Below are positions 545-34,975 of a stretch of 34,975 bases of DNA, piece by piece. A program made the translations under genes and the position numbers. Position 1 is the first letter of the stretch; every line of letters begins with the position of its first letter. Under the pieces are notes generated by a model. It saw only the letters and a program-made list of their open reading frames with translations, made no database searches and had not been told where the DNA came from. Source of the stretch: a virus; IMG/VR virus record IMGVR_UViG_3300025759_000305, positions 1-34,975 of that record. One strand, written 5' to 3'.

Positions 545-979
545 ATGCCGCAGAATAGCAAAAAAGAGTATCTGCCGGAAAAAGCCCCCTTTAGCTGGGA
601 CAAGCTTGACGGGCTACTGGCATTCAAATCAAGTCTTTTGGTTTGCTCAGACATATTAGAAGTGTCAGAAAGAACAATAAGAAATCACATCAAAGAAAGA
701 TACGGATTAACCTTCACTGATTATGCAGAAAAAAAATTATCCAGGACTAAAGTAAAACTAGTTCAAAAAGCCATTGAGATGGCAACTGGTGGCAACACCG
801 CAATGATGATCTTTTGTCTTAAGAATATAAACAAGTGGGCAGATAGATCAGAAAGCACAATAGATGTGAAAAATAAAACAGTAGAAGACCTGGTGATTGA
901 GGCAAAAAAGAAAAAGCAGCCAAAAGAGATTGAGGATGCACAATATAAGGAAAACAAAGGAAAAAACAAATGGAATTAA
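545..979 (+). CDS. terS: Terminase small subunit-like protein, variant A
   Basis: This 144-aa protein sits immediately before the HeH/SAP-like gene and the large terminase. An HTH-like segment lies near residues 30-55 (DILEVSERTIRNHIKERYG). A region near 77-100 (KAIEMATGGNTAMMIFCLKN) resembles the helix found in phage small terminases and related DNA-binding proteins. The charged tail (about 105-144) contains KTVEDLVIEAKKK. That tail is shared with the otherwise unrelated protein in the same place in the second unit, so it probably contacts the large subunit. The reading frame overlaps the next start by 10 bases. Its role would be recognising the packaging site. Confidence 0.7.
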   Translation: MPQNSKKEYLPEKAPFSWDKLDGLLAFKSSLLVCSDILEVSERTIRNHIKERYGLTFTDYAEKKLSRTKVKLVQKAIEMATGGNTAMMIFCLKNINKWADRSESTIDVKNKTVEDLVIEAKKKKQPKEIEDAQYKENKGKNKWN

Positions 980-1659
980 AAGAGTTAAAAAAACTAGCAA
1001 GTGACAACGGACTAGAGTTTGCTAAAAACGCTACAAGAGATCAAGTTAAAGCATTACTAGACGCAGCCGAAATCCCTTACAATGATGAGCCAATGCCAAG
1101 AGACTTTCAATTAGAGGCGATTGAGTCAGAAGTTAAGAAGAGTAACTACACAAGCTCAGAATATGACATTGATGAATTAATCAGTGAGTACAAAATGGCA
1201 GAGTCTTCAATTGACATTAAAAGAGCTGATCAAAAAAGAGCTGTAATCAAAAAGAAAATAGCTGAAGACAAAGAGGCATTGAAAAAGCTTTTAATTTGGG
1301 AAAGAAGGCGGGGAATTATTAGTGTATCAGATGATTACTTGCTTAATGAAATTGAAGAGTCTGAATGCACTAAAGTATGTGAGTGTACCAATAGAATCCC
1401 TAGTGGTGGTAGCTTTGCCGAGGAAGGGCAAGAGTATAAGTACAAATCTTACTATGATGAAAGCCGAAATAAAGAAGTATTTGTCGTTTTTGTCAAAAGA
1501 GAAATTGCTCCTGAAGATCAAATAAGCAAAGAGCTTGCATGGAAGATGTCTCAGGGGTTTATGCCAACAATGGACGATTATGCTCCTGCTAAAACTCAAG
1601 TAAGAAGAGTAGCAATGGTAGAATCAGAGTTTAATAAATATTTTAAAATAGAGATCTAG
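970..1659 (+). CDS. HeH/SAP-like domain protein between terS and terL
   Basis: This 229-aa protein opens with a motif (ELKKLASDNGLEF...DQVKALLDAA) typical of HeH/LEM/SAP helix-extension-helix domains, which often bind nucleic acid. The rest is charged and unrecognised. Cysteines cluster near residues 134-140 (CTKVCEC). It overlaps the small terminase and its stop is 2 bases before the probable start region of the large terminase, so translational coupling is likely. A partial second copy begins at 34532. A packaging accessory role is inferred from position only. Confidence 0.75.
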   Translation: MELKELKKLASDNGLEFAKNATRDQVKALLDAAEIPYNDEPMPRDFQLEAIESEVKKSNYTSSEYDIDELISEYKMAESSIDIKRADQKRAVIKKKIAEDKEALKKLLIWERRRGIISVSDDYLLNEIEESECTKVCECTNRIPSGGSFAEEGQEYKYKSYYDESRNKEVFVVFVKREIAPEDQISKELAWKMSQGFMPTMDDYAPAKTQVRRVAMVESEFNKYFKIEI

Positions 1660-1661
1660 TC

Positions 1662-3275
1662 ATAAAAGAATTAGAAGACTTCTATTTTTACAGTGAAAAT
1701 TGGCTGAAAATCCAGACGAAAGTTGACGGTCGTCAGCCTTTTTTACTTAGAAGGTATCAGAAGGAATTTGTTAACCTTGTTCAAAGCATTAAAGGGCCGA
1801 AAAGGCTTGTAGTTTTGAAACCTAGGCAATGTGGGTTTAGTACTTTAGTCGGTGGAATGTTTAGTCACAGAATGTTTACTGATCTAAATTTCTATGGTCT
1901 AGCTATGGCAGATAAACATGACAGGACTCAAAGCATAGCCTCTATTTATAAATATTTCTATGAAAACTTGCCCGATCAATTAAAACCGTCTGTGACTAAG
2001 TTTAATACTGAAGAAGTTTATTTTGATATATTCAAATCGGGCATAAGCTTTATGACAGGTAATGATCCTCAAGCTGGTCGGTCTGGCACGAGGAAATTTG
2101 GTCATTTGTCTGAATGGGCGTTCATTAGGTATACAAGCGAAATAGATGAAGGTGTTCAAAACTCTATTCCTCTTGATCCTGATACCTACATAATTAAAGA
2201 ATCAACAGCTAATGGTAAATCAGGTTTAGGCAAAGCCTTTTATGATCTTTGGAATGCTGCTAAACGTGGTGACTCTATCTATAAGCCTTTCTTTGTTGCC
2301 TGGTATGAAGTGGACGATTATAAATTACCTCTTGAGCCAGGATTCAGCTTGTCAAGGGAAGAAAAAGACTTAATTAAAAGAATTCCTCCCTTGACGAAAG
2401 AAAATTTGCAGTGGCGTAGAATGAAAATCACTGAATATGCTACTGATGAAAACTCTCTTCTTTCTCCTGAAGAAAGATTTAATCAAGACTTTCCTGTGGA
2501 TGATGTTACGGCATTCCTTTCAACAGGTAGTCCACTTTTTGACCAAATTGAACTAGATAAGAAAATAAACATGCTTAAGCAGTCTCCCAAAAGGGAGATA
2601 CAAAATATTCTCACCTATAAAAATCAATTCATTAGAGACAATATTCAAAATATAAAAATATATTCTCCTCCCAGGGAGAATAAGCAATACTTTCTAGGAG
2701 CTGATGTGTCTGAAGGTTTGGCGGTAGGGGACGCCTCAACCATTAGTATAATAGACCATGAATATACTCAGGTAGCCTCATATTATGGAAAGCTTGATCC
2801 TGATCTTTTCGGGCATTTAATTATCGCTATGGCAGAGTTCTACAATAATGCTTTAGTAGTTCAAGAAGTAAACAATATGGGTCATACAACTATGACCACA
2901 ATTAGAAATGAAGGCTACTCCCATGTTTATCGGAAAGTTATTGAAGACAAGATAACTAAAGAGAAAACAACTAAGCTTGGATGGAGAACAACTAAAGAGA
3001 GTAAACAAGATATGTTAAATCATTTTGTTAAGCTTTTCAGAGATAGTGGACTAAAGATCTTTGATGTTAGCTTGCTTATTGAAATGACCGCTATTACCAG
3101 GGGAGACAATGGGATAGTTGAATTAAATGGAAAGGATAGAGTTGTTGCCATGGGGCTTGCTTGCATGGGCAGGAAAGCTACTCAAAAACTAACAATAAAG
3201 ACAGATAGAAATAAAACACCACTAGACATCATGAAACAATTCTCCAAAAATAAGAAAAAAGATAGGATATTCTAA
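1662..3275 (+). CDS. terL: Terminase large subunit (ATPase-nuclease)
   Basis: This is the DNA-packaging motor. Numbering from 1662, Walker A (KPRQCGFST) is at about 53-61 and the Walker B-like segment (FGHLSEWAF) at about 147-154. The C-terminal RNase H-like nuclease has acidic residues near D348 (LGADVSEG), E402 (VVQEVNN) and D492 (KDRVVAMGLA). The open frame begins at 1647 and contains no ATG, GTG or TTG before the TTG at 1815, which lies inside Walker A and would delete the N-terminal adenine-binding region. The upstream residues look like a genuine terminase N-terminus (RRYQKEFV). I therefore place the start near the ATA at 1662, 3 bases after the upstream stop, with GAG 8 bases before it. 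The exact start is uncertain; a sequence error is possible. Confidence 0.9.
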   Translation: MKELEDFYFYSENWLKIQTKVDGRQPFLLRRYQKEFVNLVQSIKGPKRLVVLKPRQCGFSTLVGGMFSHRMFTDLNFYGLAMADKHDRTQSIASIYKYFYENLPDQLKPSVTKFNTEEVYFDIFKSGISFMTGNDPQAGRSGTRKFGHLSEWAFIRYTSEIDEGVQNSIPLDPDTYIIKESTANGKSGLGKAFYDLWNAAKRGDSIYKPFFVAWYEVDDYKLPLEPGFSLSREEKDLIKRIPPLTKENLQWRRMKITEYATDENSLLSPEERFNQDFPVDDVTAFLSTGSPLFDQIELDKKINMLKQSPKREIQNILTYKNQFIRDNIQNIKIYSPPRENKQYFLGADVSEGLAVGDASTISIIDHEYTQVASYYGKLDPDLFGHLIIAMAEFYNNALVVQEVNNMGHTTMTTIRNEGYSHVYRKVIEDKITKEKTTKLGWRTTKESKQDMLNHFVKLFRDSGLKIFDVSLLIEMTAITRGDNGIVELNGKDRVVAMGLACMGRKATQKLTIKTDRNKTPLDIMKQFSKNKKKDRIF

Positions 3276-3409
3276 TGGACAAGAAATTAAAGAAATCATG
3301 GTTAATTGTTATTTTAGGCGCATTAATCACCGCTATTGGAGGTGGTATAACCTACATAGGCTTAGAGCAAGTTCAAGAATACAAGCTTGATGAATATAAA
3401 CTGCCTTAA
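3275..3409 (+). CDS. Tiny single-pass membrane protein (44 aa)
   Basis: Its ATG shares the final A of the large terminase stop codon (TAATG), so it is probably translationally coupled. A basic N-terminus (MDKKLKKS) precedes one hydrophobic segment (about residues 9-28, WLIVILGALITAIGGGITYI), followed by a short charged tail. Its stop overlaps the start of the next small gene. No function recognised; it is one of three consecutive small membrane proteins. Confidence 0.65.
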   Translation: MDKKLKKSWLIVILGALITAIGGGITYIGLEQVQEYKLDEYKLP

Positions 3410-3555
3410 TGTGGGATTTATTTAAGACAGGTATATACTCTCTATTAGTATTGCTTTTTGTTAGCTGGCTTTGCTATATGTCAGTTAGTGCATTTAAAGA
3501 GCTTCAAAGGTATGAGCTAGAAAGAAAGAAAAATGGAGTGATAATCTATGATTGA
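3409..3555 (+). CDS. Tiny single-pass membrane protein (48 aa)
   Basis: The ATG overlaps the previous stop (TAATG). One hydrophobic segment spans about residues 9-27, followed by a charged helix (KELQRYELERKK). Its final codons overlap the start of the next gene at 3548. The chained overlaps support expression of all three. Function unknown; a holin-like or virion role cannot be judged. Confidence 0.6.
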   Translation: MWDLFKTGIYSLLVLLFVSWLCYMSVSAFKELQRYELERKKNGVIIYD

Positions 3556-3778
3556 TATTTTTATCATTTGTGTAATTGTTTGGACCATCTCAAGTTTAGC
3601 TGTTTTCTCTTATTTCTGCTTTTATTTCCTCCCAGGTTTGATTAATCCTGAGCAAGCTCAGAAGCTTGAACTAGAAAGGAAGGCAAAAAAGATAGAAAAG
3701 AAAAAAGGGAAGGTTTACAACCCTAGCCAAGATTTAGATAGGACAATGAGGAAGGGAAAGCCTAAGATATTTGATTAA
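3548..3778 (+). CDS. Small membrane protein with basic tail (76 aa)
   Basis: The N-terminus is strongly hydrophobic (about residues 2-32), and the C-terminus is rich in lysine and arginine (KAKKIEKKKGK). This suggests an N-out, C-in single-pass protein. It ends the rightward run after the large terminase, and its last 17 bases overlap the end of the convergent methyltransferase gene. No family recognised. Confidence 0.6.
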   Translation: MIDIFIICVIVWTISSLAVFSYFCFYFLPGLINPEQAQKLELERKAKKIEKKKGKVYNPSQDLDRTMRKGKPKIFD

Positions 3779-4517
3779 TCCTTTCTTTTGCTATGTTAAA
3801 ATACTTCTCTTCTTTTTCTATTCCGATGAATTTTCTATTCAAGTTTTTACAAGCGACACCTGTACTCCCACTTCCCATTGTAAAGTCTAAAACAGTTTCA
3901 TTTTTTAGTGTGTAGGTTTTGACTAAATATTCGAGTAGTGTAACTGGCTTTTGTGTTGGGTGCAGTCTTTTATCTCCATATAGAGCGTGTTTAAATTCAA
4001 TAATTCTTTTAGGGTATTTTAAAGACGGGTCATAATTTTTAGAATATTCTCTTTTTCCATTACTTATAATTTTTGCTCCGTCTAATGTATTTTTCCCGTT
4101 TTTATAACTGACTTCATTTCTTCTATCTCTAATTTTACCTATTACTTTTATCATTTGTGGATAATAAAAAGATTTTTTTTGAAAAAACACAGATATTAAT
4201 TCGTGGGTGCAATGAGGTATAGTTTTAGCATGAACAAATGTTGACGATTTTCCTTTTTCCCATATCCAGTCATACTTAAACATTTTAACATTAGATATCC
4301 TAAGAGCGCTACTAAATGGCTCACTCCCAAACAAACAAATAGCACCATTATCTTTAGTAATTCTTTTAAGTTCATTCCACATAGGTTCAAAAGGTATGAC
4401 AGTATCCCACTTGCACGCTGTCGTCCCATAAGGAGGATCGGTCAATATCATGTCTATAGACTTATCGGGAATACTTTTCATGACCTCAAGACAATCGCCC
4501 AAATGTAAGCCAATCAT
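3762..4517 (-). CDS. Orphan DNA adenine methyltransferase (beta-class order)
   Basis: This 251-aa enzyme probably methylates the N6 of adenine using S-adenosylmethionine. The catalytic motif TDPPYG is at residues 26-31. The motif LHPTQKP lies near 184-190, and the AdoMet-binding motif I (LDFTMGSGSTG) near 210-220. Catalytic motif first and AdoMet motif last is the beta-class order of the N6_N4_Mtase family. There is no restriction enzyme beside it, so protection from host restriction or a regulatory role is likely. It is transcribed against the late genes and starts at the stop codon of the zinc-finger gene. Confidence 0.9.
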   Translation of the reverse strand: MIGLHLGDCLEVMKSIPDKSIDMILTDPPYGTTACKWDTVIPFEPMWNELKRITKDNGAICLFGSEPFSSALRISNVKMFKYDWIWEKGKSSTFVHAKTIPHCTHELISVFFQKKSFYYPQMIKVIGKIRDRRNEVSYKNGKNTLDGAKIISNGKREYSKNYDPSLKYPKRIIEFKHALYGDKRLHPTQKPVTLLEYLVKTYTLKNETVLDFTMGSGSTGVACKNLNRKFIGIEKEEKYFNIAKERINQIS

Positions 4518-4930
4518 TAATAAAGCCCTTCAATCTTGCCATCTCCAATAGCGTCAAGCTCTCTGTCACCAAAGCCAATTCCCATATCATGAAGCTTCTT
4601 TAACAATTCAGGGGTCCAGTACTTGGTCTTATTCTCGCTCTCTGGTAAGTCCTCATAACCAATCTCGACTAATCCCATATTCTTTAGATGCTGTTTGTAT
4701 TCCCCATAAGTAGCGCAGTGCTTTCTTATGTTTCTTTGAAAGCCAGGGACAAAGCTATCTCTAACCATAACTTTAGACCTAATAACTGCCATCTTAGGAT
4801 AGCCACAGCTAAAGCATTGATGCCCATTAATAGAGTATTGAGTTTTTTCAAATTCCTCTATGCTTAGCCTTCTCAAAAACTCTTCATTGCACTTGCGACA
4901 TTTAAAGCGATAATTTTCATGTTTTTCCAT
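4517..4930 (-). CDS. Zinc-finger protein upstream of the methyltransferase
   Basis: This 137-aa protein has two CxxC pairs (C10/C13 in FKCRKCNEEF and C39/C42 in QCFSCGYP) that should form one zinc ribbon. It is followed by a basic region and a C-terminal helix. The layout resembles small phage proteins of unknown function with an N-terminal zinc ribbon. It overlaps the methyltransferase start, so the two form an inverted two-gene cassette. Its start faces the portal gene across a 72-base gap holding the 23-bp element. Confidence 0.75.
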   Translation of the reverse strand: MEKHENYRFKCRKCNEEFLRRLSIEEFEKTQYSINGHQCFSCGYPKMAVIRSKVMVRDSFVPGFQRNIRKHCATYGEYKQHLKNMGLVEIGYEDLPESENKTKYWTPELLKKLHDMGIGFGDRELDAIGDGKIEGLY

Positions 4931-4943
4931 GAGTGAAATTCTA

Positions 4944-4966
4944 AGCGTATATTTTTATATACACAA
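4944..4966 (+). promoter_or_regulatory. 23-bp late-promoter/operator-like element, copy 2
   Basis: This matches the element at 107-129 at the outer nine bases on each side (AGCGTATAT and TATACACAA) and differs only in the 5-base A/T core. It lies between the divergent zinc-finger gene and the portal gene, 36 bases before the portal ATG. That is where rightward late transcription must restart after the inverted cassette. A 6-bp hairpin (AGGCAG/CTGCTT, 4981-5002) lies between the element and the portal start. Confidence 0.6.
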
Positions 4967-5002
4967 GTTTTTTACTTAACAGGCAGCAATAAAAATCTGC
5001 TT

Positions 5003-7000
5003 ATGGATAAAAAGAAAAAGCCACTTGATATAGTAAAACAAGTTAAAAAAGACCTTTCAAAGTATCGGAAAAACTTCGAGACTCTTTGGGAGGATGAAGA
5101 AGACGCATATTATGGGAAAATCTGGAAAAATACTCCTGAATTTCGTCCCTATGAAAATATGTGCTTCCAAATTGTCGAATCAGAAGTTCCGATATTAAGT
5201 GATTCTTATCCAGGTGTTGCCGTAAAGGTAACTGATCCAGAATTTTTAGAACAATCTAAGATATTACAAAAAGGCATTGACTGGGTTCTAGAGTCCCAAA
5301 ACTTCCAAATTAAATTTCCTAATGTAGTGAGAAAATCACTCATATCCGCACCGTCCTACCTTCACCCATATTATGATGCCAATGCTAAAAATGGAGAAGG
5401 CGAAAATAGAATCGAGCAAATCGATTGGCGTTTCGTCTGGCTTTCAGGAAATAGCGAGTACATCGAAGACTGCGACAAGGCTCGCATTGAATTGAAAAGA
5501 TCCCGTGAATGGTTAAAGCTTAACTATAAGAATTTCACAAAAGAGATTGAAAATCAAAAACCGGACATAATCGAAAAGTCCGAGCGAGACCATCAGCTAG
5601 AGCGTTTTGATTCAATGGAATACGCTCGAAGAAAGAAGCCAGCTATGTATCAAGATGATGATATGCTTAAGCTGGTTAAGACTTATATTCGTGACTACTC
5701 ACTTGAGGAAATACCTCAAGAAGAGACAATTGAAGACATTGAAAAAGAAAAAGAGCAATTAGCCGAGGGCATGAGCCCTGATATTAATCTCTATGAAGAC
5801 CATAACTATCACATAGAGGCTCACTCTCAAGAAATAATGGAAATCTTTGCCCAGGTAGGGGCTCAAGATGAAGAATCCTTTCAAATGGCAATCGAGCAAA
5901 TTCTAGCCGAGTCACCTGAAAGCGGAGTTGAAGAGCTAGTGTTTAAAGTTGAGCTACTCAAAAGCCACATTGAAGAGCATCAAGTTCTACAAAAAGAAAA
6001 TCCGAAAGGTGGAAGACCTAAATATAAAAATGGCTTAAGAGTCATTGAAACACTAGAGGATAAAACCGTCCTTTACGATGGACCCTCTCAAGATGATCAT
6101 GCAGAAATTCCACTAGTCCCCTTCTATGCTTATAGAGATGGGACTATTTATGGCTATGGTGAAATAAGAAATATTATTGACTCCGAGAGAATGAAAGCAG
6201 AGCTTCAATATAAAGAATATGAAGGCCTAAGAAAAGTAGCCAACCCAGGCTTAATAGTTGATGAAGAATCAGGATTAACTGAAGACGATATAACTAATGA
6301 AGACGGTGCCATCTACGTTCTACCTCAAGGGACTAACGTTAGATACCTTCAACCTGGAAGTGTTAGCCCGCAGATCGGACAGTTTAACCAAGATCGAAAA
6401 AGATCAATTCTGGATATCTCAGGAGTCAATGAAGCTACTCAAGGAAAGATGCCAGCTCCAAACGCAGCTGCCTACACTGTTGAGAAAATCAACCAACAAG
6501 CTGTTGGCAGGATAAGATTAAAAGATCGGCAAAATCAAAGATACTCAATTAAAAGACTTGGTAAACTTTTAGCAAGCAATATTATTCAATATTGGACTAA
6601 TGACAAAGTTCTTTACTTAACTGAAGAGGGCGATCAAATAGATCAAATCGTCTTCAATCCTATTGGGATGCAAGAGTTAGAATATGAAGTTGAGATAAGT
6701 GAAGGATCAATGGCAGGGATTGATAAGGACTCCTACAATGCCATGCTGTTTAACTTACTTAATGCCGGTCAAATCACCTTAAAAGATATTCTAGAATTAG
6801 GTGATATTCCTAAAGCTAAAAAACTAAAAGCAATTGTAGCAGAAAGAGAAAATACTGAAGCTCAATTGCAGCAAATGCAACAAGAAAATATTTTATTAAA
6901 GGGACAATATGCTCCGCAAAGCCTCACTGAAGAGGAAGCAGAGATATTTGCCCAGTTACAATCTGAAGCACAAATGACCCCCAATGATGGGCAAGTCTAG
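5003..7000 (+). CDS. Portal protein
   Basis: This 665-aa protein fits the P22-like type of podovirus portal: size, position after the terminase and before the scaffold, and a core with FYAYRDGTIYGYGEIRN near residues 375-390. The portal is the dodecameric ring through which DNA enters and leaves the head. The C-terminal ~60 residues are rich in Gln and Glu and predicted to be helical. No strong Shine-Dalgarno lies at normal spacing from the ATG; the only AGG is about 20 bases upstream within a small hairpin. Confidence 0.85.
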   Translation: MDKKKKPLDIVKQVKKDLSKYRKNFETLWEDEEDAYYGKIWKNTPEFRPYENMCFQIVESEVPILSDSYPGVAVKVTDPEFLEQSKILQKGIDWVLESQNFQIKFPNVVRKSLISAPSYLHPYYDANAKNGEGENRIEQIDWRFVWLSGNSEYIEDCDKARIELKRSREWLKLNYKNFTKEIENQKPDIIEKSERDHQLERFDSMEYARRKKPAMYQDDDMLKLVKTYIRDYSLEEIPQEETIEDIEKEKEQLAEGMSPDINLYEDHNYHIEAHSQEIMEIFAQVGAQDEESFQMAIEQILAESPESGVEELVFKVELLKSHIEEHQVLQKENPKGGRPKYKNGLRVIETLEDKTVLYDGPSQDDHAEIPLVPFYAYRDGTIYGYGEIRNIIDSERMKAELQYKEYEGLRKVANPGLIVDEESGLTEDDITNEDGAIYVLPQGTNVRYLQPGSVSPQIGQFNQDRKRSILDISGVNEATQGKMPAPNAAAYTVEKINQQAVGRIRLKDRQNQRYSIKRLGKLLASNIIQYWTNDKVLYLTEEGDQIDQIVFNPIGMQELEYEVEISEGSMAGIDKDSYNAMLFNLLNAGQITLKDILELGDIPKAKKLKAIVAERENTEAQLQQMQQENILLKGQYAPQSLTEEEAEIFAQLQSEAQMTPNDGQV

Positions 7001-8027: not shown

Positions 8028-8041
8028 CAAAAGGATAAGTT

Positions 8042-9252
8042 ATGGCGTTTACTTACACACAAGTCACGGCTAGAGTGTTGGCCGCTTAATATAGGGATAT
8101 ATTAATATGAACTGGGGAAAAAACGGGAAGGCTAAAATTCAAAAGAATCATGCTAATCCGAACGGAAGTATCGGGAGTAACAACCCCTTACACGTGCAAC
8201 GCATAGGCAATGAAACTGCAATAGCAGAATATAACTTGCCCACGAGTCTCCGGCACCTAGAACAGGTGAAAAGGTATGCTGAACTTATGGGAAACCATAA
8301 GAACTAGAGGATAAAAAGCCTTTAGGGTAACAAATTGATCACTAACGATCTAATTAAGGATAAATTAAGTGAAGGCGTTTTCAATTCAAATGCTTTCTTA
8401 GCACGTCTAAGAGAAAAACAAATGTTAGAGGAAGGCGGGAATAAGATTCTTTGTCCTTTAATGACAGTAGATGATACTGGGTCAACAGGTGAGTTCTACT
8501 CTCCACGAGATGCTCTGTCTCTAAATGAATATGATGGAATTTCGGCGTCTGAGCATGACTGGAAATACATCGTAGAGAGCGTTGTAGTTTACAAGGCTGA
8601 CATTGCTAAAAATGCTGGTAAACTAGGTGTTTTAAAGCTTATTGACAGCAAAGTTCGTCAAGCTGAAATGGCAATGAGACAAAGAATGGCTAAAAGTGCT
8701 GTTGGTGATGGAACTGGTGCTAATGAGTTCATCGGTCTAGATGCTATTATCGCTTCATCTGGTTCTTACGGCGGGATTGCATCTACTGATCTTCCTAGCT
8801 GGGTTTCTTATGTAGATGACAATAGCGATGTTGCTAGGGCTTTAACTCAAGCGATCGTTGACAAGGCTTACGACCAAGCTGCTGAATTTGGAATTGGTGC
8901 GCCTACTCTTGGTATCATGGGTAAAGGTGTTTTCTCTAAGTTCAAAGGACTTTTAACAGGTATTCAAAGAACTACTCGTGAAAATACTCTTGATGGTCTA
9001 GGACATAAGGGACAAGCTCTTGTCTACAATGGGATCGACCATATTATTGAGAACAATATGAATTCTGGGGAATTATATTATATTGACGAGGGTCATTTCC
9101 GTCTTCATGTGCATCAGGACCATAACATGCGTCGTCAATCGATCAAAGATCTTGAGACAGCTGATGCATTGCTTGAAAGAATTTTCCTTTACGGTGCTGT
9201 TGTTGCTTCAGAGAGAAAATTTCACTCAAGAATTAATGATATTACAGTTTAA
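8042..9252 (+). CDS. Major capsid protein, split by a group I intron
   Basis: The start is ATG 8042, 6 bases after a good AGGA ribosome binding site. The first exon encodes MAFTYTQVTARVLAA and then runs into TAA at 8087. The second exon continues in frame from 8338 (ITNDLIKDKLSEG) to 9252. Joining 8086 to 8338 gives a 319-aa protein. The body has hallmarks of an HK97-fold coat family: about SEHDWKYIVESVVVYKADI, KVRQAEMAMRQRM, and GTGANEFIGLDAIIASSG with a following YGGI. The TTG at 8335 has no ribosome binding site and would give a truncated N-terminus, so intron splicing explains the gene best. Exact splice junctions are uncertain by a few bases. Confidence 0.85.
8087..8337 (+). ncRNA. Group I intron in the capsid gene (no homing endonuclease)
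   Basis: About 250 nt between two in-frame parts of the capsid gene fold into a group I core in the canonical order. P3 is 8112-8117 with 8248-8253 (CTGGGG/CTCCGG, two wobbles). P4 is 8124-8127 with 8157-8160. A P5 hairpin is 8137-8148 (ATTC/GAAT). P7 is GCATA 8201-8205 with TATGC 8275-8279. A P7.1-like extension is 8206-8240 (GGCAA/TTGCC, inner CTGC/GCAG). P8 is CACCT 8254-8258 with AGGTG 8264-8268, then a 6-nt J8/7 (AAAAGG). P9 is 8284-8301, seven bp with a GAAA loop. A further hairpin is 8304-8325. A hairpin with a GGGA loop covers the 5' end (8086-8105). P1 and the exact U/G splice sites could not be fixed. Confidence 0.8.
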
Positions 9253-27622: not shown

Positions 27623-28162
27623 CTATTTAACGTGCTTCCACGTTCTATTTTTTATTATGTCACACAAGGTAGCCTCAGTTACTGAGTATATCTGAGATAA
27701 TTCCCTGTAGGTTACCTTGGTTCTCATTTTTAATTTTCTAATATCTCTCACCATTTCATCATCCAGCTTTCTATGAGGATGATCCTCACCTCTGGCTACA
27801 TTGCCATTTTGCAAACCATTTTCCCATGCATGTAATTGGTTTTCTCTATTATCACACCACTCTAAATTTTCAACTCTGTTATCTTTTTTATTGCCATTTA
27901 TATGATTAACTTGAGGTTTGCCATTCGGATTTTCTATAAAGGCTATTGCTACTAACCTGTGGACTTTAAGTGTTTTTTTCTTACTATTTTTAGATAAGTA
28001 AACACGCTCATAGCTTTTTTTGGTGATAGCTTTCTTTAACTTTATTCTTTTAAAACTGGCGATTCGACCATCTTTATAAGTTATATCTTTATGAGAATAA
28101 ACATCTCCATTGGATGAAACGCTGTAGTGACCCTCGTAACCTTTTACTGGAAGAATTTTCAC
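27623..28162 (-). CDS. HNH homing endonuclease (NUMOD4-HNH)
   Basis: This 179-aa enzyme has an N-terminal NUMOD4-like segment (VKGYEGHYSVSSNGDVYS, about 6-23). An HNH core follows at about 67-112 (VHRLVAIAFIENP...VNHINGNKKDNRVENLEW). A C-terminal helix-turn-helix is at about 130-175 (HRKLDDEMVRDI...TYRELSQIYSV). This is a free-standing homing endonuclease, inserted between SSB and the Sak4-like ATPase. Its stop and start overlap or abut neighbours closely. It spreads its own gene by cutting related genomes; it may also serve the endonuclease-free capsid intron in trans (speculative). Confidence 0.9.
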   Translation of the reverse strand: MKILPVKGYEGHYSVSSNGDVYSHKDITYKDGRIASFKRIKLKKAITKKSYERVYLSKNSKKKTLKVHRLVAIAFIENPNGKPQVNHINGNKKDNRVENLEWCDNRENQLHAWENGLQNGNVARGEDHPHRKLDDEMVRDIRKLKMRTKVTYRELSQIYSVTEATLCDIIKNRTWKHVK

Positions 28163-33093: not shown

Positions 33094-33563
33094 AAATGGT
33101 ACTATTAATGGTTTTTATGATCGGATGTACAACAAAGGCAATGAAGAATAGAAAGCCAAGACCAAAGAGTGTTGAACTAGGTATGAGCATAATCCAGGTT
33201 GAAAGGTATTTTAGAAGTGATCCTATCGCTAAATCGATTAACAAGAATGGAAAAACTTTAATCTTTGAAGAGACCAAAGGTTTTAGTGATACCTATGAGC
33301 ATATATGTAAGTTCAATAAAGAAGGTAAGCTGATAAGTTTAGATGTTAGGAGACAAGCTCCAAGGTCTTCAGGAGGTGGTGCTTTTTACATAAATAATAA
33401 CAACTTAGCCGATCAAATAGCTGAACCAGCAATGAGAGAACAAAGAATTATTGAAGACATGAATCAAAGAGCACACGAGTTCAATATGATGCAACAGAGC
33501 AAGCAGCAAACATGCACTAGTAATCCCGATATGATGGGTGGATTTACAACAACTTGCTACTAA
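33090..33563 (+). CDS. BamE/SmpA-like lipoprotein
   Basis: This 157-aa protein starts MKMVLLMVFMIGC, a short lipoprotein signal with lipidated Cys at residue 13. The next region (VELGMSIIQVERYF, about 28-41) resembles the SmpA/OmlA (BamE) fold start. The C-terminus is Gln/Met-rich with a CTSNPD...TTTCY end. BamE relatives bind outer-membrane machinery, so a role in changing the host surface is possible. Its stop codon's last base begins the diverged repeat. Confidence 0.65.
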   Translation: MKMVLLMVFMIGCTTKAMKNRKPRPKSVELGMSIIQVERYFRSDPIAKSINKNGKTLIFEETKGFSDTYEHICKFNKEGKLISLDVRRQAPRSSGGGAFYINNNNLADQIAEPAMREQRIIEDMNQRAHEFNMMQQSKQQTCTSNPDMMGGFTTTCY

Positions 33564-33620
33564 TTATAAGATAACAATAAGTTAGGGTTTATTTTGTGAA
33601 CCCTGGCCTTTTGGAGTTAG

Positions 33621-33648
33621 CTGCCTCAGAAATGGGGCAGTTTTTTTT
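33621..33648 (+). terminator. Rho-independent terminator, copy 2
   Basis: The sequence is identical to 59-86: a CTGCCTC/GGGGCAG stem, loop AGAAAT and eight T residues. Here it clearly follows the replication-side operon, 57 bases after the BamE-like gene, and so ends that transcript. Confidence 0.9.
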
Positions 33649-33668
33649 GTCCGAATATAGGACTTGTC

Positions 33669-33691
33669 AGCGTATAAAAAAATATACACAA
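33669..33691 (+). promoter_or_regulatory. 23-bp late-promoter/operator-like element, copy 3
   Basis: This is AGCGTATA, then an A-run, then TATACACAA. It corresponds to the element at 107-129 with a single T-to-A change at the ninth base, again 7 bases before the start of the 125-aa gene. Confidence 0.6.
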
Positions 33692-33698
33692 TTAATCC

Positions 33699-34076
33699 AT
33701 GTCAAAAGCAGGAAGGCTCAAATGGGTTAGAGAAACGCTTGGTTTAAGACCAAGTGATGTGTATTTTCCACTAGATATCAAGCGAATTACATTTTTTAGT
33801 CGAGAAAAGAATCTGCAAGGGGTGAATCTCCTAGACCTTGCTTCAATGATTGAATTCTATAATGAAAAATGGCAAGAGAAGTTCCAATCTGCATATCCAA
33901 AGTACCATAATAGGACTATTAGACGCATAACATTTGAGTTTATTGTGTTTGGCGTTGATCGGGGTGATGCTGAAAATGAGCGTATAATCAAGATGTTAAA
34001 AGATAATTATAAAGAAAAAGAAGAGATTCTTAATAAAAGAATAATGGAATTAAAAGTGGAGTTGATGAAGAAATGA
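33699..34076 (+). CDS. Small HTH-like protein upstream of the terminase (copy 2)
   Basis: This is a 125-aa homologue of the protein at 137-514. It differs at about seven residues, with a cluster at 56-65 (NEKWQEKFQSAY against NSRWQKKFQSEY), while residues 66-115 are identical. The clustered changes next to the swapped terminase suggest the two vary together. Function unknown. Confidence 0.75.
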   Translation: MSKAGRLKWVRETLGLRPSDVYFPLDIKRITFFSREKNLQGVNLLDLASMIEFYNEKWQEKFQSAYPKYHNRTIRRITFEFIVFGVDRGDAENERIIKMLKDNYKEKEEILNKRIMELKVELMKK

Positions 34077-34113
34077 TGCACAAGCTCGCACAGTACTATA
34101 AAGAGACTAATTA

Positions 34114-34569
34114 ATGTATGGCACAAAATACAAGCCTGAATATTGTAAGAAACTGGTTGAGCATATGTCTGAGGGGTACAGTTTCACAACATTTGGAGCG
34201 GTGGTCATGTGTGGGCGTAGAACTCTTTATGAGTGGCTTGATAGGCATGAGGAGTTTAGAGAAGCAAAGCAATTAGGGGAAGCTCTTTGTCAGAGATATT
34301 ACGAAAACCTTAATAAGAGGCGATTGGAAGGTGACAAGGATATTGATGGCTATATGCTTCAATTCACCATGAGGACTCGTTTCTATAAAGACTATGGAGA
34401 CAAGTCCAAGCTGCAAATAGATGTGCAGAATAAAACCGTAGAAGATCTAGTGATTGAAGCCAAGAAAAAGCAATTAGAAAACAAACCCATCGAAGAGGTT
34501 GAATATAAGGAAGTAACAAAGGAAAAAACAAATGGAATTAAAAGAACTAAAAGAGTTAGCAAAAAGTAA
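34114..34569 (+). CDS. terS: Terminase small subunit-like protein, variant B
   Basis: This 151-aa protein occupies the place of variant A but has an unrelated body. Residues about 8-50 (KLVEHMSEGYSFTTFGAVV...TLYEWLDRHEEF) are a typical small-terminase HTH of another family. From about residue 103 (IDVQNKTVEDLVIEAKKK) it shares the tail of variant A, with a frame shift near the end that lengthens it. It overlaps the next gene by 38 bases, against 10 in variant A. Confidence 0.8.
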   Translation: MYGTKYKPEYCKKLVEHMSEGYSFTTFGAVVMCGRRTLYEWLDRHEEFREAKQLGEALCQRYYENLNKRRLEGDKDIDGYMLQFTMRTRFYKDYGDKSKLQIDVQNKTVEDLVIEAKKKQLENKPIEEVEYKEVTKEKTNGIKRTKRVSKK

Positions 34570-34975
34570 TGGATTAGAGTTTGCTAAAAACGCCACAAGA
34601 GATCAAGTTAAAGCATTACTAGACGCAGCTGAAATCCCTTACAATGATGAGCCAATGCCAAGAGATTTTCAATTAGAGGCAATCGAGTCAGAAGTTAAAA
34701 AGAATAACTACACTAGCTCAGAGTATGACATTGATGAATTAATCAGTGAGTACAAAATGGCAGAGTCTTCAATTGATATTAAAAGAGCTGATCAAAAAAG
34801 AGCCGTTATCAAAAAGAAAATAGCTGAAGACAAAGAGGCACTAAAAAAGCTTTTAATTTGGGAAAGAAGACGAGGAATTATTAGTGTATCAGATGATTAC
34901 TTGCTTAATGAAATTGAAGAGTCTGAATGCACTAAAGTATGTGAGTGTACCAATAGAATCCCTAGTGGTGGTAGC
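34532..34975 (+). CDS. HeH/SAP-like domain protein (copy 2, cut by window end)
   Basis: Only the first 148 codons are inside the window. It is nearly identical to the protein at 970-1659, including the ELKELAKSNGLEF opening and the CTKVCEC cluster, and differs mainly at residues 8-12 and around 58. The frame is still open at the last base. Confidence 0.75.
   Translation, partial: MELKELKELAKSNGLEFAKNATRDQVKALLDAAEIPYNDEPMPRDFQLEAIESEVKKNNYTSSEYDIDELISEYKMAESSIDIKRADQKRAVIKKKIAEDKEALKKLLIWERRRGIISVSDDYLLNEIEESECTKVCECTNRIPSGGS

What the first reader, a model, noticed from the sequence alone, without database searches (positions are those of the whole stretch)
8042..8337. Unannotated group I intron splits the major capsid gene
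The capsid ORF has no proper start: its TTG (8335) lacks a ribosome binding site. About 250 bases upstream, a well-placed AGGA-ATG opens a 15-codon ORF that ends at once in TAA. The RNA between folds into the ordered group I core: P3 (CTGGGG/CTCCGG), P4, P5, P7 (GCATA/TATGC), P8 (CACCT/AGGTG), J8/7 AAAAGG and P9 with a GAAA loop, forming the P3-P8/P7 pseudoknot. Several U/G splice choices restore the frame: 8086 to 8338, 8087 to 8327, 8079 to 8328. The intron is minimal and carries no endonuclease gene, in the essential coat gene. I could not define P1, and so cannot fix the junctions.
Basis: partly seen in the sequence, partly recalled or inferred. Interest (0 to 1): 0.85.

Follow-up and report, generated by a model that had tools for sequence, protein, structure and literature searches.

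The report
Self-splicing intron in phage capsid gene
A 266-base self-splicing RNA (a group I intron) interrupts this phage's major coat-protein gene after its tenth codon; it is almost certainly real and was left unannotated, but introns of this kind, even in coat genes, are already known from other phages.

Summary
The finding holds. Ten distinct intron-less capsid relatives run through this junction with no indel (e.g. MSFSYNQVTA-ITHDLIKNKMTEGVF). P1 (exon CGGCU / guide GGCCG, U.G at T8071), omega-G (G8337) and P10 all fall at the same place. The Rfam group I model matches end to end, though below its curated cut-off (21 of 50 bits). The intron's 3' half is homologous to introns in over 100 phage records; in a 25-sequence alignment 26 of 33 proposed pairs show compensatory changes, and a profile built without the window finds it at E 5e-33. 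P7.1/P7.2 place it in subgroup IA, the usual phage type. It has no homing endonuclease. Capsid-gene group I introns are documented already (mycobacteriophage LittleE, crAss-like phages), so this is a new member of a known kind. Splicing itself was not tested.

The parts
8032..8035 (+). AGGA, likely ribosome-binding site of the spliced capsid mRNA
   Evidence: sequence, 6 nt before ATG 8042
8042..8071 (+). Exon 1 of the major capsid gene, codons 1-10: MAFTYTQVTA
   Evidence: aligns without indel to N-termini of intron-less homologues
8072..8337 (+). Group I intron, 266 nt, IA-type, no homing endonuclease
   Evidence: RF00028 hit 8062-8301; homology to phage introns; covariation
8067..8084 (+). 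P1: exon CGGCU 8067-8071 with guide GGCCG 8080-8084, U.G at the 5' splice site
   Evidence: 5 of 5 pairs; the RF00028 alignment also places P1 here
8086..8105 (+). P2 hairpin UUAAUAUA/UAUAUUAA
   Evidence: 8 of 8 pairs
8112..8117 (+). P3 5' strand CUGGGG (pairs with 8248-8253 CUCCGG)
   Evidence: compensatory changes seen in L031 and L074
8248..8253 (+). P3 3' strand CUCCGG
8124..8160 (+). P4 (CGGG/UCCG) enclosing P5 (GGC/GCU, 8130-8154)
8162..8195 (+). P6 (ACG 8162-8164 / CGU 8193-8195) with P6a (GUA/UAC, GGG/CCC)
   Evidence: ACG/CGU becomes GUG/CAC in L047 and GCG/CGC in L049 (by eye)
8201..8205 (+). P7 5' strand GCAUA (pairs with 8275-8279 UAUGC)
   Evidence: 100% paired in 25 sequences, 2 pairs with double changes
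8206..8240 (+). P7.1 (GGCAA/UUGCC) and P7.2 (CUGC/GCAG), IA-subgroup insert between P7 and P3
   Evidence: double changes at all 5 pairs of P7.1 and 3 of 4 of P7.2
8254..8268 (+). P8 CACCU/AGGUG
   Evidence: 93% paired, all 5 pairs with double changes
8269..8274 (+). J8/7 AAAAGG
   Evidence: RF00028 alignment
8275..8279 (+). P7 3' strand UAUGC
8284..8301 (+). P9 CUUAUGG-GAAA-CCAUAAG
   Evidence: outer six pairs 100% paired in 25 sequences, 4 of them with double changes; loop-closing pair 84%
8304..8325 (+). P9.1 CUAGAGG/CCUUUAG
   Evidence: 98% paired, 6 of 7 pairs with double changes
8337..8337 (+). Omega-G, last intron base
   Evidence: relatives share the 3' end GRTAACAAAWTG or close variants; protein junction
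8338..8343 (+). 3' exon start AUCACU, P10 partner of guide bases 8074-8079 AGUGUU (5 of 6 pairs)
8338..9252 (+). Exon 2 of the major capsid gene (304 codons and stop); spliced protein 314 aa
   Evidence: PHROG_9953 major head protein, E 1.9e-40

Best explanation
The major capsid gene (8042-9252) is interrupted after codon 10 by a 266-nt IA-type group I intron at 8072-8337. In the transcript the intron folds into the P3-P8/P7 ribozyme core. Its internal guide pairs with the last five bases of exon 1 (P1, U.G at the splice site) and with the first bases of exon 2 (P10). An external guanosine attacks after T8071, the freed exon then attacks after G8337, and the exons join in frame to give MAFTYTQVTA-ITNDLIKDKLSEGVF..., 314 aa. 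Unspliced mRNA gives only a 15-residue peptide from the proper start. The element has no endonuclease of its own, so it is either a degenerate (formerly mobile) copy or one moved by recombination. Shown here: anatomy, homology, covariation, in-frame junction. Inferred: catalysis, splicing in the cell, loss of mobility.
For: RF00028 match over the whole model, E 5.6e-5 for the record, 21.2 bits. Intron-less homologues L004-L007, L009-L011, L055, L058, L064 cross the junction without indel, e.g. L058 MSFSYNQVTAITHDLIKNKMTEGVF and L011 FTYGQVTAITHDLIKDKMTEGVF against the joined window exons MAFTYTQVTA|ITNDLIKDKLSEGVF. P1 5/5, P10 5/6 and all core helices pair. Blastn similarity of the intron to 118 phage records at E<=1e-3, several of them interrupting TerL, portal, tape measure, DNA polymerase or capsid genes, with three loci above the Rfam gathering score. 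Covariation: 95.0% of cells paired, 26 of 33 pairs with double changes, none of 500 shuffles as high, slid structures at most 46%. Window-free profile E 4.7e-33. Fold energy z -2.75.
Against: The Rfam score is below the curated cut-off (21 versus 50 bits), although most homologous introns in other phages also fall below it. There are no RNA reads and no in vitro test. Intron-bearing copies are known from one phage population only (window, L002, L003, all 100% identical over the intron).
Confidence: 0.96

Rival explanations
1. The insertion is a ribozyme remnant that no longer splices, and the capsid is translated from TTG 8335 without its true N-terminal residues.
For: TTG 8335 is in frame and AGGG lies 7 nt upstream; the ORF finder lists this start.
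Against: Every core helix is intact, including P1, P10, P7 and omega-G; a dead intron in an essential gene would be expected to decay. Exon 1 keeps a good ribosome-binding site and a conserved protein N-terminus. The AGGG-TTG stretch belongs to the conserved intron 3' end found in unrelated genes, so it did not evolve as a start.
Confidence: 0.02
2. A group I intron is present but the junctions differ from 8071/8338 (for example omega-G at G8325, or one of the reader's 5' sites).
For: G8325 is preceded by UUUA, which can pair with UGAA 8280-8283 (P9.0-like), and exon 2 from 8326 would stay in frame (GNKLITNDLI).
Against: 8319-8325 is the 3' strand of P9.1, which covaries in relatives; relatives share the intron end 12 bases further on; GNKL or RVLAA would be insertions absent from all intron-less homologues.
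Confidence: 0.015
3. Translational bypassing or a split capsid made from two reading frames, with the RNA structure being incidental.
For: The exon 1 ORF ends at a stop and the second ORF resumes in the matching frame 266 nt on.
Against: Homology of the insert to introns in many unrelated genes and the group I anatomy explain it fully; known bypassing gaps are far shorter (own knowledge: T4 gene 60, 50 nt).
Confidence: 0.005

Closest known systems
IA-type group I introns of low-GC Gram-positive phages (e.g. TerL intron of Streptococcus phage 2972, AY699705; portal-gene intron of Streptococcus phage Javan576, MK448987; Staphylococcus 6ec and PT1-1; Alicyclobacillus MMB025 DNA polymerase)
   Same: Same core, P9 and P9.1 hairpins and 3' end, P7.1/P7.2 insert in most; 70-90% nucleotide identity over the 3' third to half. 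Those of 2972 and Javan576 are also short and carry no annotated ORF.
   Different: Different host gene and insertion site; the window is in a phage with an Mx8-type capsid (PHROG_9953).
Mycobacteriophage LittleE capsid-gene intron (PMC3706429)
   Same: Group I-type intron in the major capsid gene, U at the end of exon 1 and G at the end of the intron, removed from RNA (RT-PCR in that paper).
   Different: About 819 bp with a LAGLIDADG endonuclease; capsid of HK97 type; not shown to be related in sequence.
Capsid-gene introns of crAss-like and related gut phages (cr128_1, bajarodcaudo virus 1, Dulem virus 41; review PMC10136315)
   Same: Group I introns in the major capsid gene; the matching stretches are 71-79% identical to the window's intron.
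   Different: Endonuclease genes are annotated within or beside them and some capsid genes hold several introns; other capsid families.

Membership tests
Group I intron | Ordered core P3-P9 with the P3-P8/P7 pseudoknot | tested here: met
   helices found in order, RF00028 match to model 1-253, covariation in P7, P7.1, P7.2, P8, P9, P9.1, compensatory changes in P3 and P6 (by eye)
Group I intron | 5' splice site after a U that pairs with G in P1 | tested here: met
   T8071.G8080 closes CGGCU/GGCCG
Group I intron | Intron ends in omega-G | tested here: met
   G8337 at the protein-defined junction
Group I intron | Guanosine-binding G-C pair in P7 | tested here: met
   G8201-C8279 invariant in 25 of 25 sequences; its equivalence to Tetrahymena G264-C311 is inferred from the GACUA/UAGUC members of the alignment
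Group I intron | Removal joins the exons into the gene's normal product | tested here: met
   joined exons align to ten distinct intron-less homologues without indel
Group I intron | Self-splicing by two guanosine-initiated transesterifications | not testable with these tools
   needs in vitro transcription or RNA sequencing
Group I intron | Rfam RF00028 gathering score (50 bits); a curated reporting threshold, not a defining feature of the ribozyme | tested here: not met
   21.2 bits; most homologous phage introns scanned also miss it
IA subgroup of group I introns | P7.1/P7.2 between P7 and the P3 3' strand | tested here: met
   8206-8240, covarying
Mobile (homing) group I intron | Encoded homing endonuclease | tested here: not met
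   266 nt; its only listed ORF (8107-8307, 66 aa) has no PHROG match

The most novel reading that the evidence does not exclude
An intron lineage that circulates in phages of Gram-positive hosts and in gut crAss-like phages has entered a new site in the Mx8-type capsid family of an unrelated phage, without an endonuclease of its own, which would make it a recent cross-host transfer by recombination or by an endonuclease acting in trans. The host of this phage is not known, so the breadth of the jump is unproven.
Probability: 0.4. Interest if true: 0.4.

Novelty: new member of a known kind. Interest (0 to 1): 0.3.

Why it matters
Automatic annotation calls the capsid from a TTG inside the intron's 3' end, giving a protein with a false start and without its true first ten residues, and a standard Rfam scan misses the intron because of its cut-off. 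It indicates that compact ORF-less phage introns are under-annotated in metagenomic phages, and it adds an insertion site in a gene that must be highly expressed, where splicing has to be very efficient.

Tried and rejected
A second intron in TerL (its listed ORF 1815-3275 begins at TTG next to Walker A): rejected, the frame is open upstream and model R1 finds no other intron in the window. A prophage copy in bacterial genomes to name the host: none found. tRNAs as a host clue: none. The 66-aa ORF 8107-8307 as a gene: no family match and it lies wholly on the ribozyme core. Omega-G at 8325: rejected, see rivals. Introns in the related phages: nine other related records have no match to R1.

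Full report
Setting. The window is a 34,975-base IMG/VR virus record of a tailed phage: TerS, TerL, P22-like portal (PF16510), scaffold (PHROG_3927), then the major capsid protein (PHROG_9953, E 1.9e-40). The nearest capsids in named phage records are those of Myxococcus phages Mx8 and Mx9, at about 26% identity.

Observation. AGGA-ATG at 8032/8042 opens a 15-codon ORF ended by TAA; the capsid ORF is listed from TTG 8335. One detail is too strong: AGGG lies 7 bases upstream of that TTG, so a weak ribosome-binding site cannot be excluded.

RNA family test. RF00028 matches 8062-8301 from the first to the last model position, 21.2 bits, E 0.0067 against all 4227 families in a 1-kb search and E 5.6e-5 as a single-family search of the record. 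It is below the gathering score of 50, so a default scan reports nothing.

Protein test. Ten distinct related capsids from viral contigs (L004-L007, L009-L011, L055, L058, L064; L008 has the same N-terminal region as L007) lack any interruption. Their N-termini read MAFTYGQITALTNK (L004), MALTYTQITALTNK (L006), MALTYGQITAVTHD (L055), MSFSYNQVTAITHD (L058)..FTYGQVTAITHDLIKDKMTEGVF (L011). Joining window codons 8042-8071 to 8338 onward gives MAFTYTQVTA-ITNDLIKDKLSEGVF, which aligns without an indel.

Junctions from the RNA side. P1 pairs exon CGGCU (8067-8071) with GGCCG (8080-8084) with the expected U.G at the splice site; P10 pairs AUCACU (8338-8343) with AGUGUU (8074-8079) at 5 of 6 positions. 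The last intron base G8337 is omega-G. Homologous introns in other genes share the 3' end (..GATAACAAATTG or close variants) up to or within a few bases of this point. Thus RNA and protein evidence place both ends at the same bases.

Anatomy. P1; P2 8086-8105; P3 CUGGGG/CUCCGG; P4 CGGG/UCCG; P5 GGC/GCU; P6 ACG/CGU; P7 GCAUA/UAUGC; P7.1 GGCAA/UUGCC; P7.2 CUGC/GCAG; P8 CACCU/AGGUG; J8/7 AAAAGG; P9 with GAAA loop; P9.1 CUAGAGG/CCUUUAG. (P6 as given was read; the variant tried first did not pair.) The P7.1/P7.2 insert marks the IA subgroup (established knowledge), to which phage introns are traditionally assigned (PMC11878797).

Relatives and covariation. Blastn finds the intron, mainly its 3' half, in 118 phage records at E<=1e-3, 63 of Streptococcus and 33 of Staphylococcus. 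The host genes include TerL (2972, IMEP5, 6ec, S-CoN_Ph1), portal (Javan576), tape measure (6ec), DNA polymerase (MMB025) and the capsid (bajarodcaudo virus 1, cr128_1). A scan of viral contigs for the P9-P9.1 motif found 11 further contigs besides two that carry the window's own intron. On 25 sequences (A2) the helices P7 to P9.1, drawn from the window, are formed in 95.0% of cells against 76.7% in shuffles and at most 45.7% when slid; 26 of 33 pairs have double changes and the covariation score is 0.486 against 0.158. P3 and P6, read by eye in L031, L074, L047 and L049, also change in compensation. A profile built without the window finds 8198-8337 at E 4.7e-33; 50 simulated windows gave no hit. 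The minimum-energy fold contains most of these hairpins and is better than shuffles (z -2.75).

Distribution. The intron is 100% identical in two further contigs, L002 and L003; the second belongs to a contig that differs from the window elsewhere (94% identity over 859-5272). It is absent from nine other related records searched and occurs once in the window. That fits a single acquisition in this phage lineage, or loss in the others; the records are fragments and I cannot tell which, though acquisition is the simpler reading (inference).

Mobility. The intron carries no endonuclease. A free-standing HNH gene of PHROG_59 lies at 27623-28162 on the minus strand, but nothing links it to this site.

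Novelty. Group I introns in major capsid genes are documented: mycobacteriophage LittleE, with splicing shown by RT-PCR, and lactococcal Tuc2009 as cited there (PMC3706429); crAss-like phages, up to three in one capsid gene (PMC10136315). Self-splicing of phage introns in vitro has been shown in Bastillevirinae, most of whose introns resemble the IA subgroup (PMC11878797), and the authors note that the Rfam model is incomplete. This is therefore a well-supported new member of a known kind, at an insertion site for which I found no precedent among the capsids searched.

Noticed in passing
1647-1817: The TerL frame is open upstream of its listed TTG 1815 (NRDLVIKELEDFYFYSENW...) with no ATG/GTG/TTG. 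Relative L068 has TTG-AAA-GAA-TTA at the matching place (L069 also offers a TTG), where the window and its close contigs L067 and L070 read ATA-AAA-GAA-TTA, suggesting an AUA start codon.
   Followed up: partly
1-1413 and 33563-34975: The two ends of the window repeat each other imperfectly (90-93% identity over about 514 and 563 bases) and carry two different TerS versions (545-979 and 34114-34569). Contigs L067 and L070 join the right-hand version to TerL. Probably a near-complete permuted genome assembled from two co-occurring strains.
   Followed up: partly
27623-28162 (-): Free-standing HNH endonuclease of PHROG_59, a family that also occurs inside phage introns.
   Followed up: no
L007, L011 and L064 capsid N-termini: These relatives have an extra hydrophobic N-terminal stretch (e.g. 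MLKFILNFLSASFRILFNESG) before the FTYxQV-like motif.
   Followed up: no
2500-3500, window against L067: Between otherwise near-identical contigs, divergence is concentrated around TerS and its neighbour and in the second half of TerL and just beyond (2500-3500), a mosaic pattern suggesting recombination between strains.
   Followed up: no
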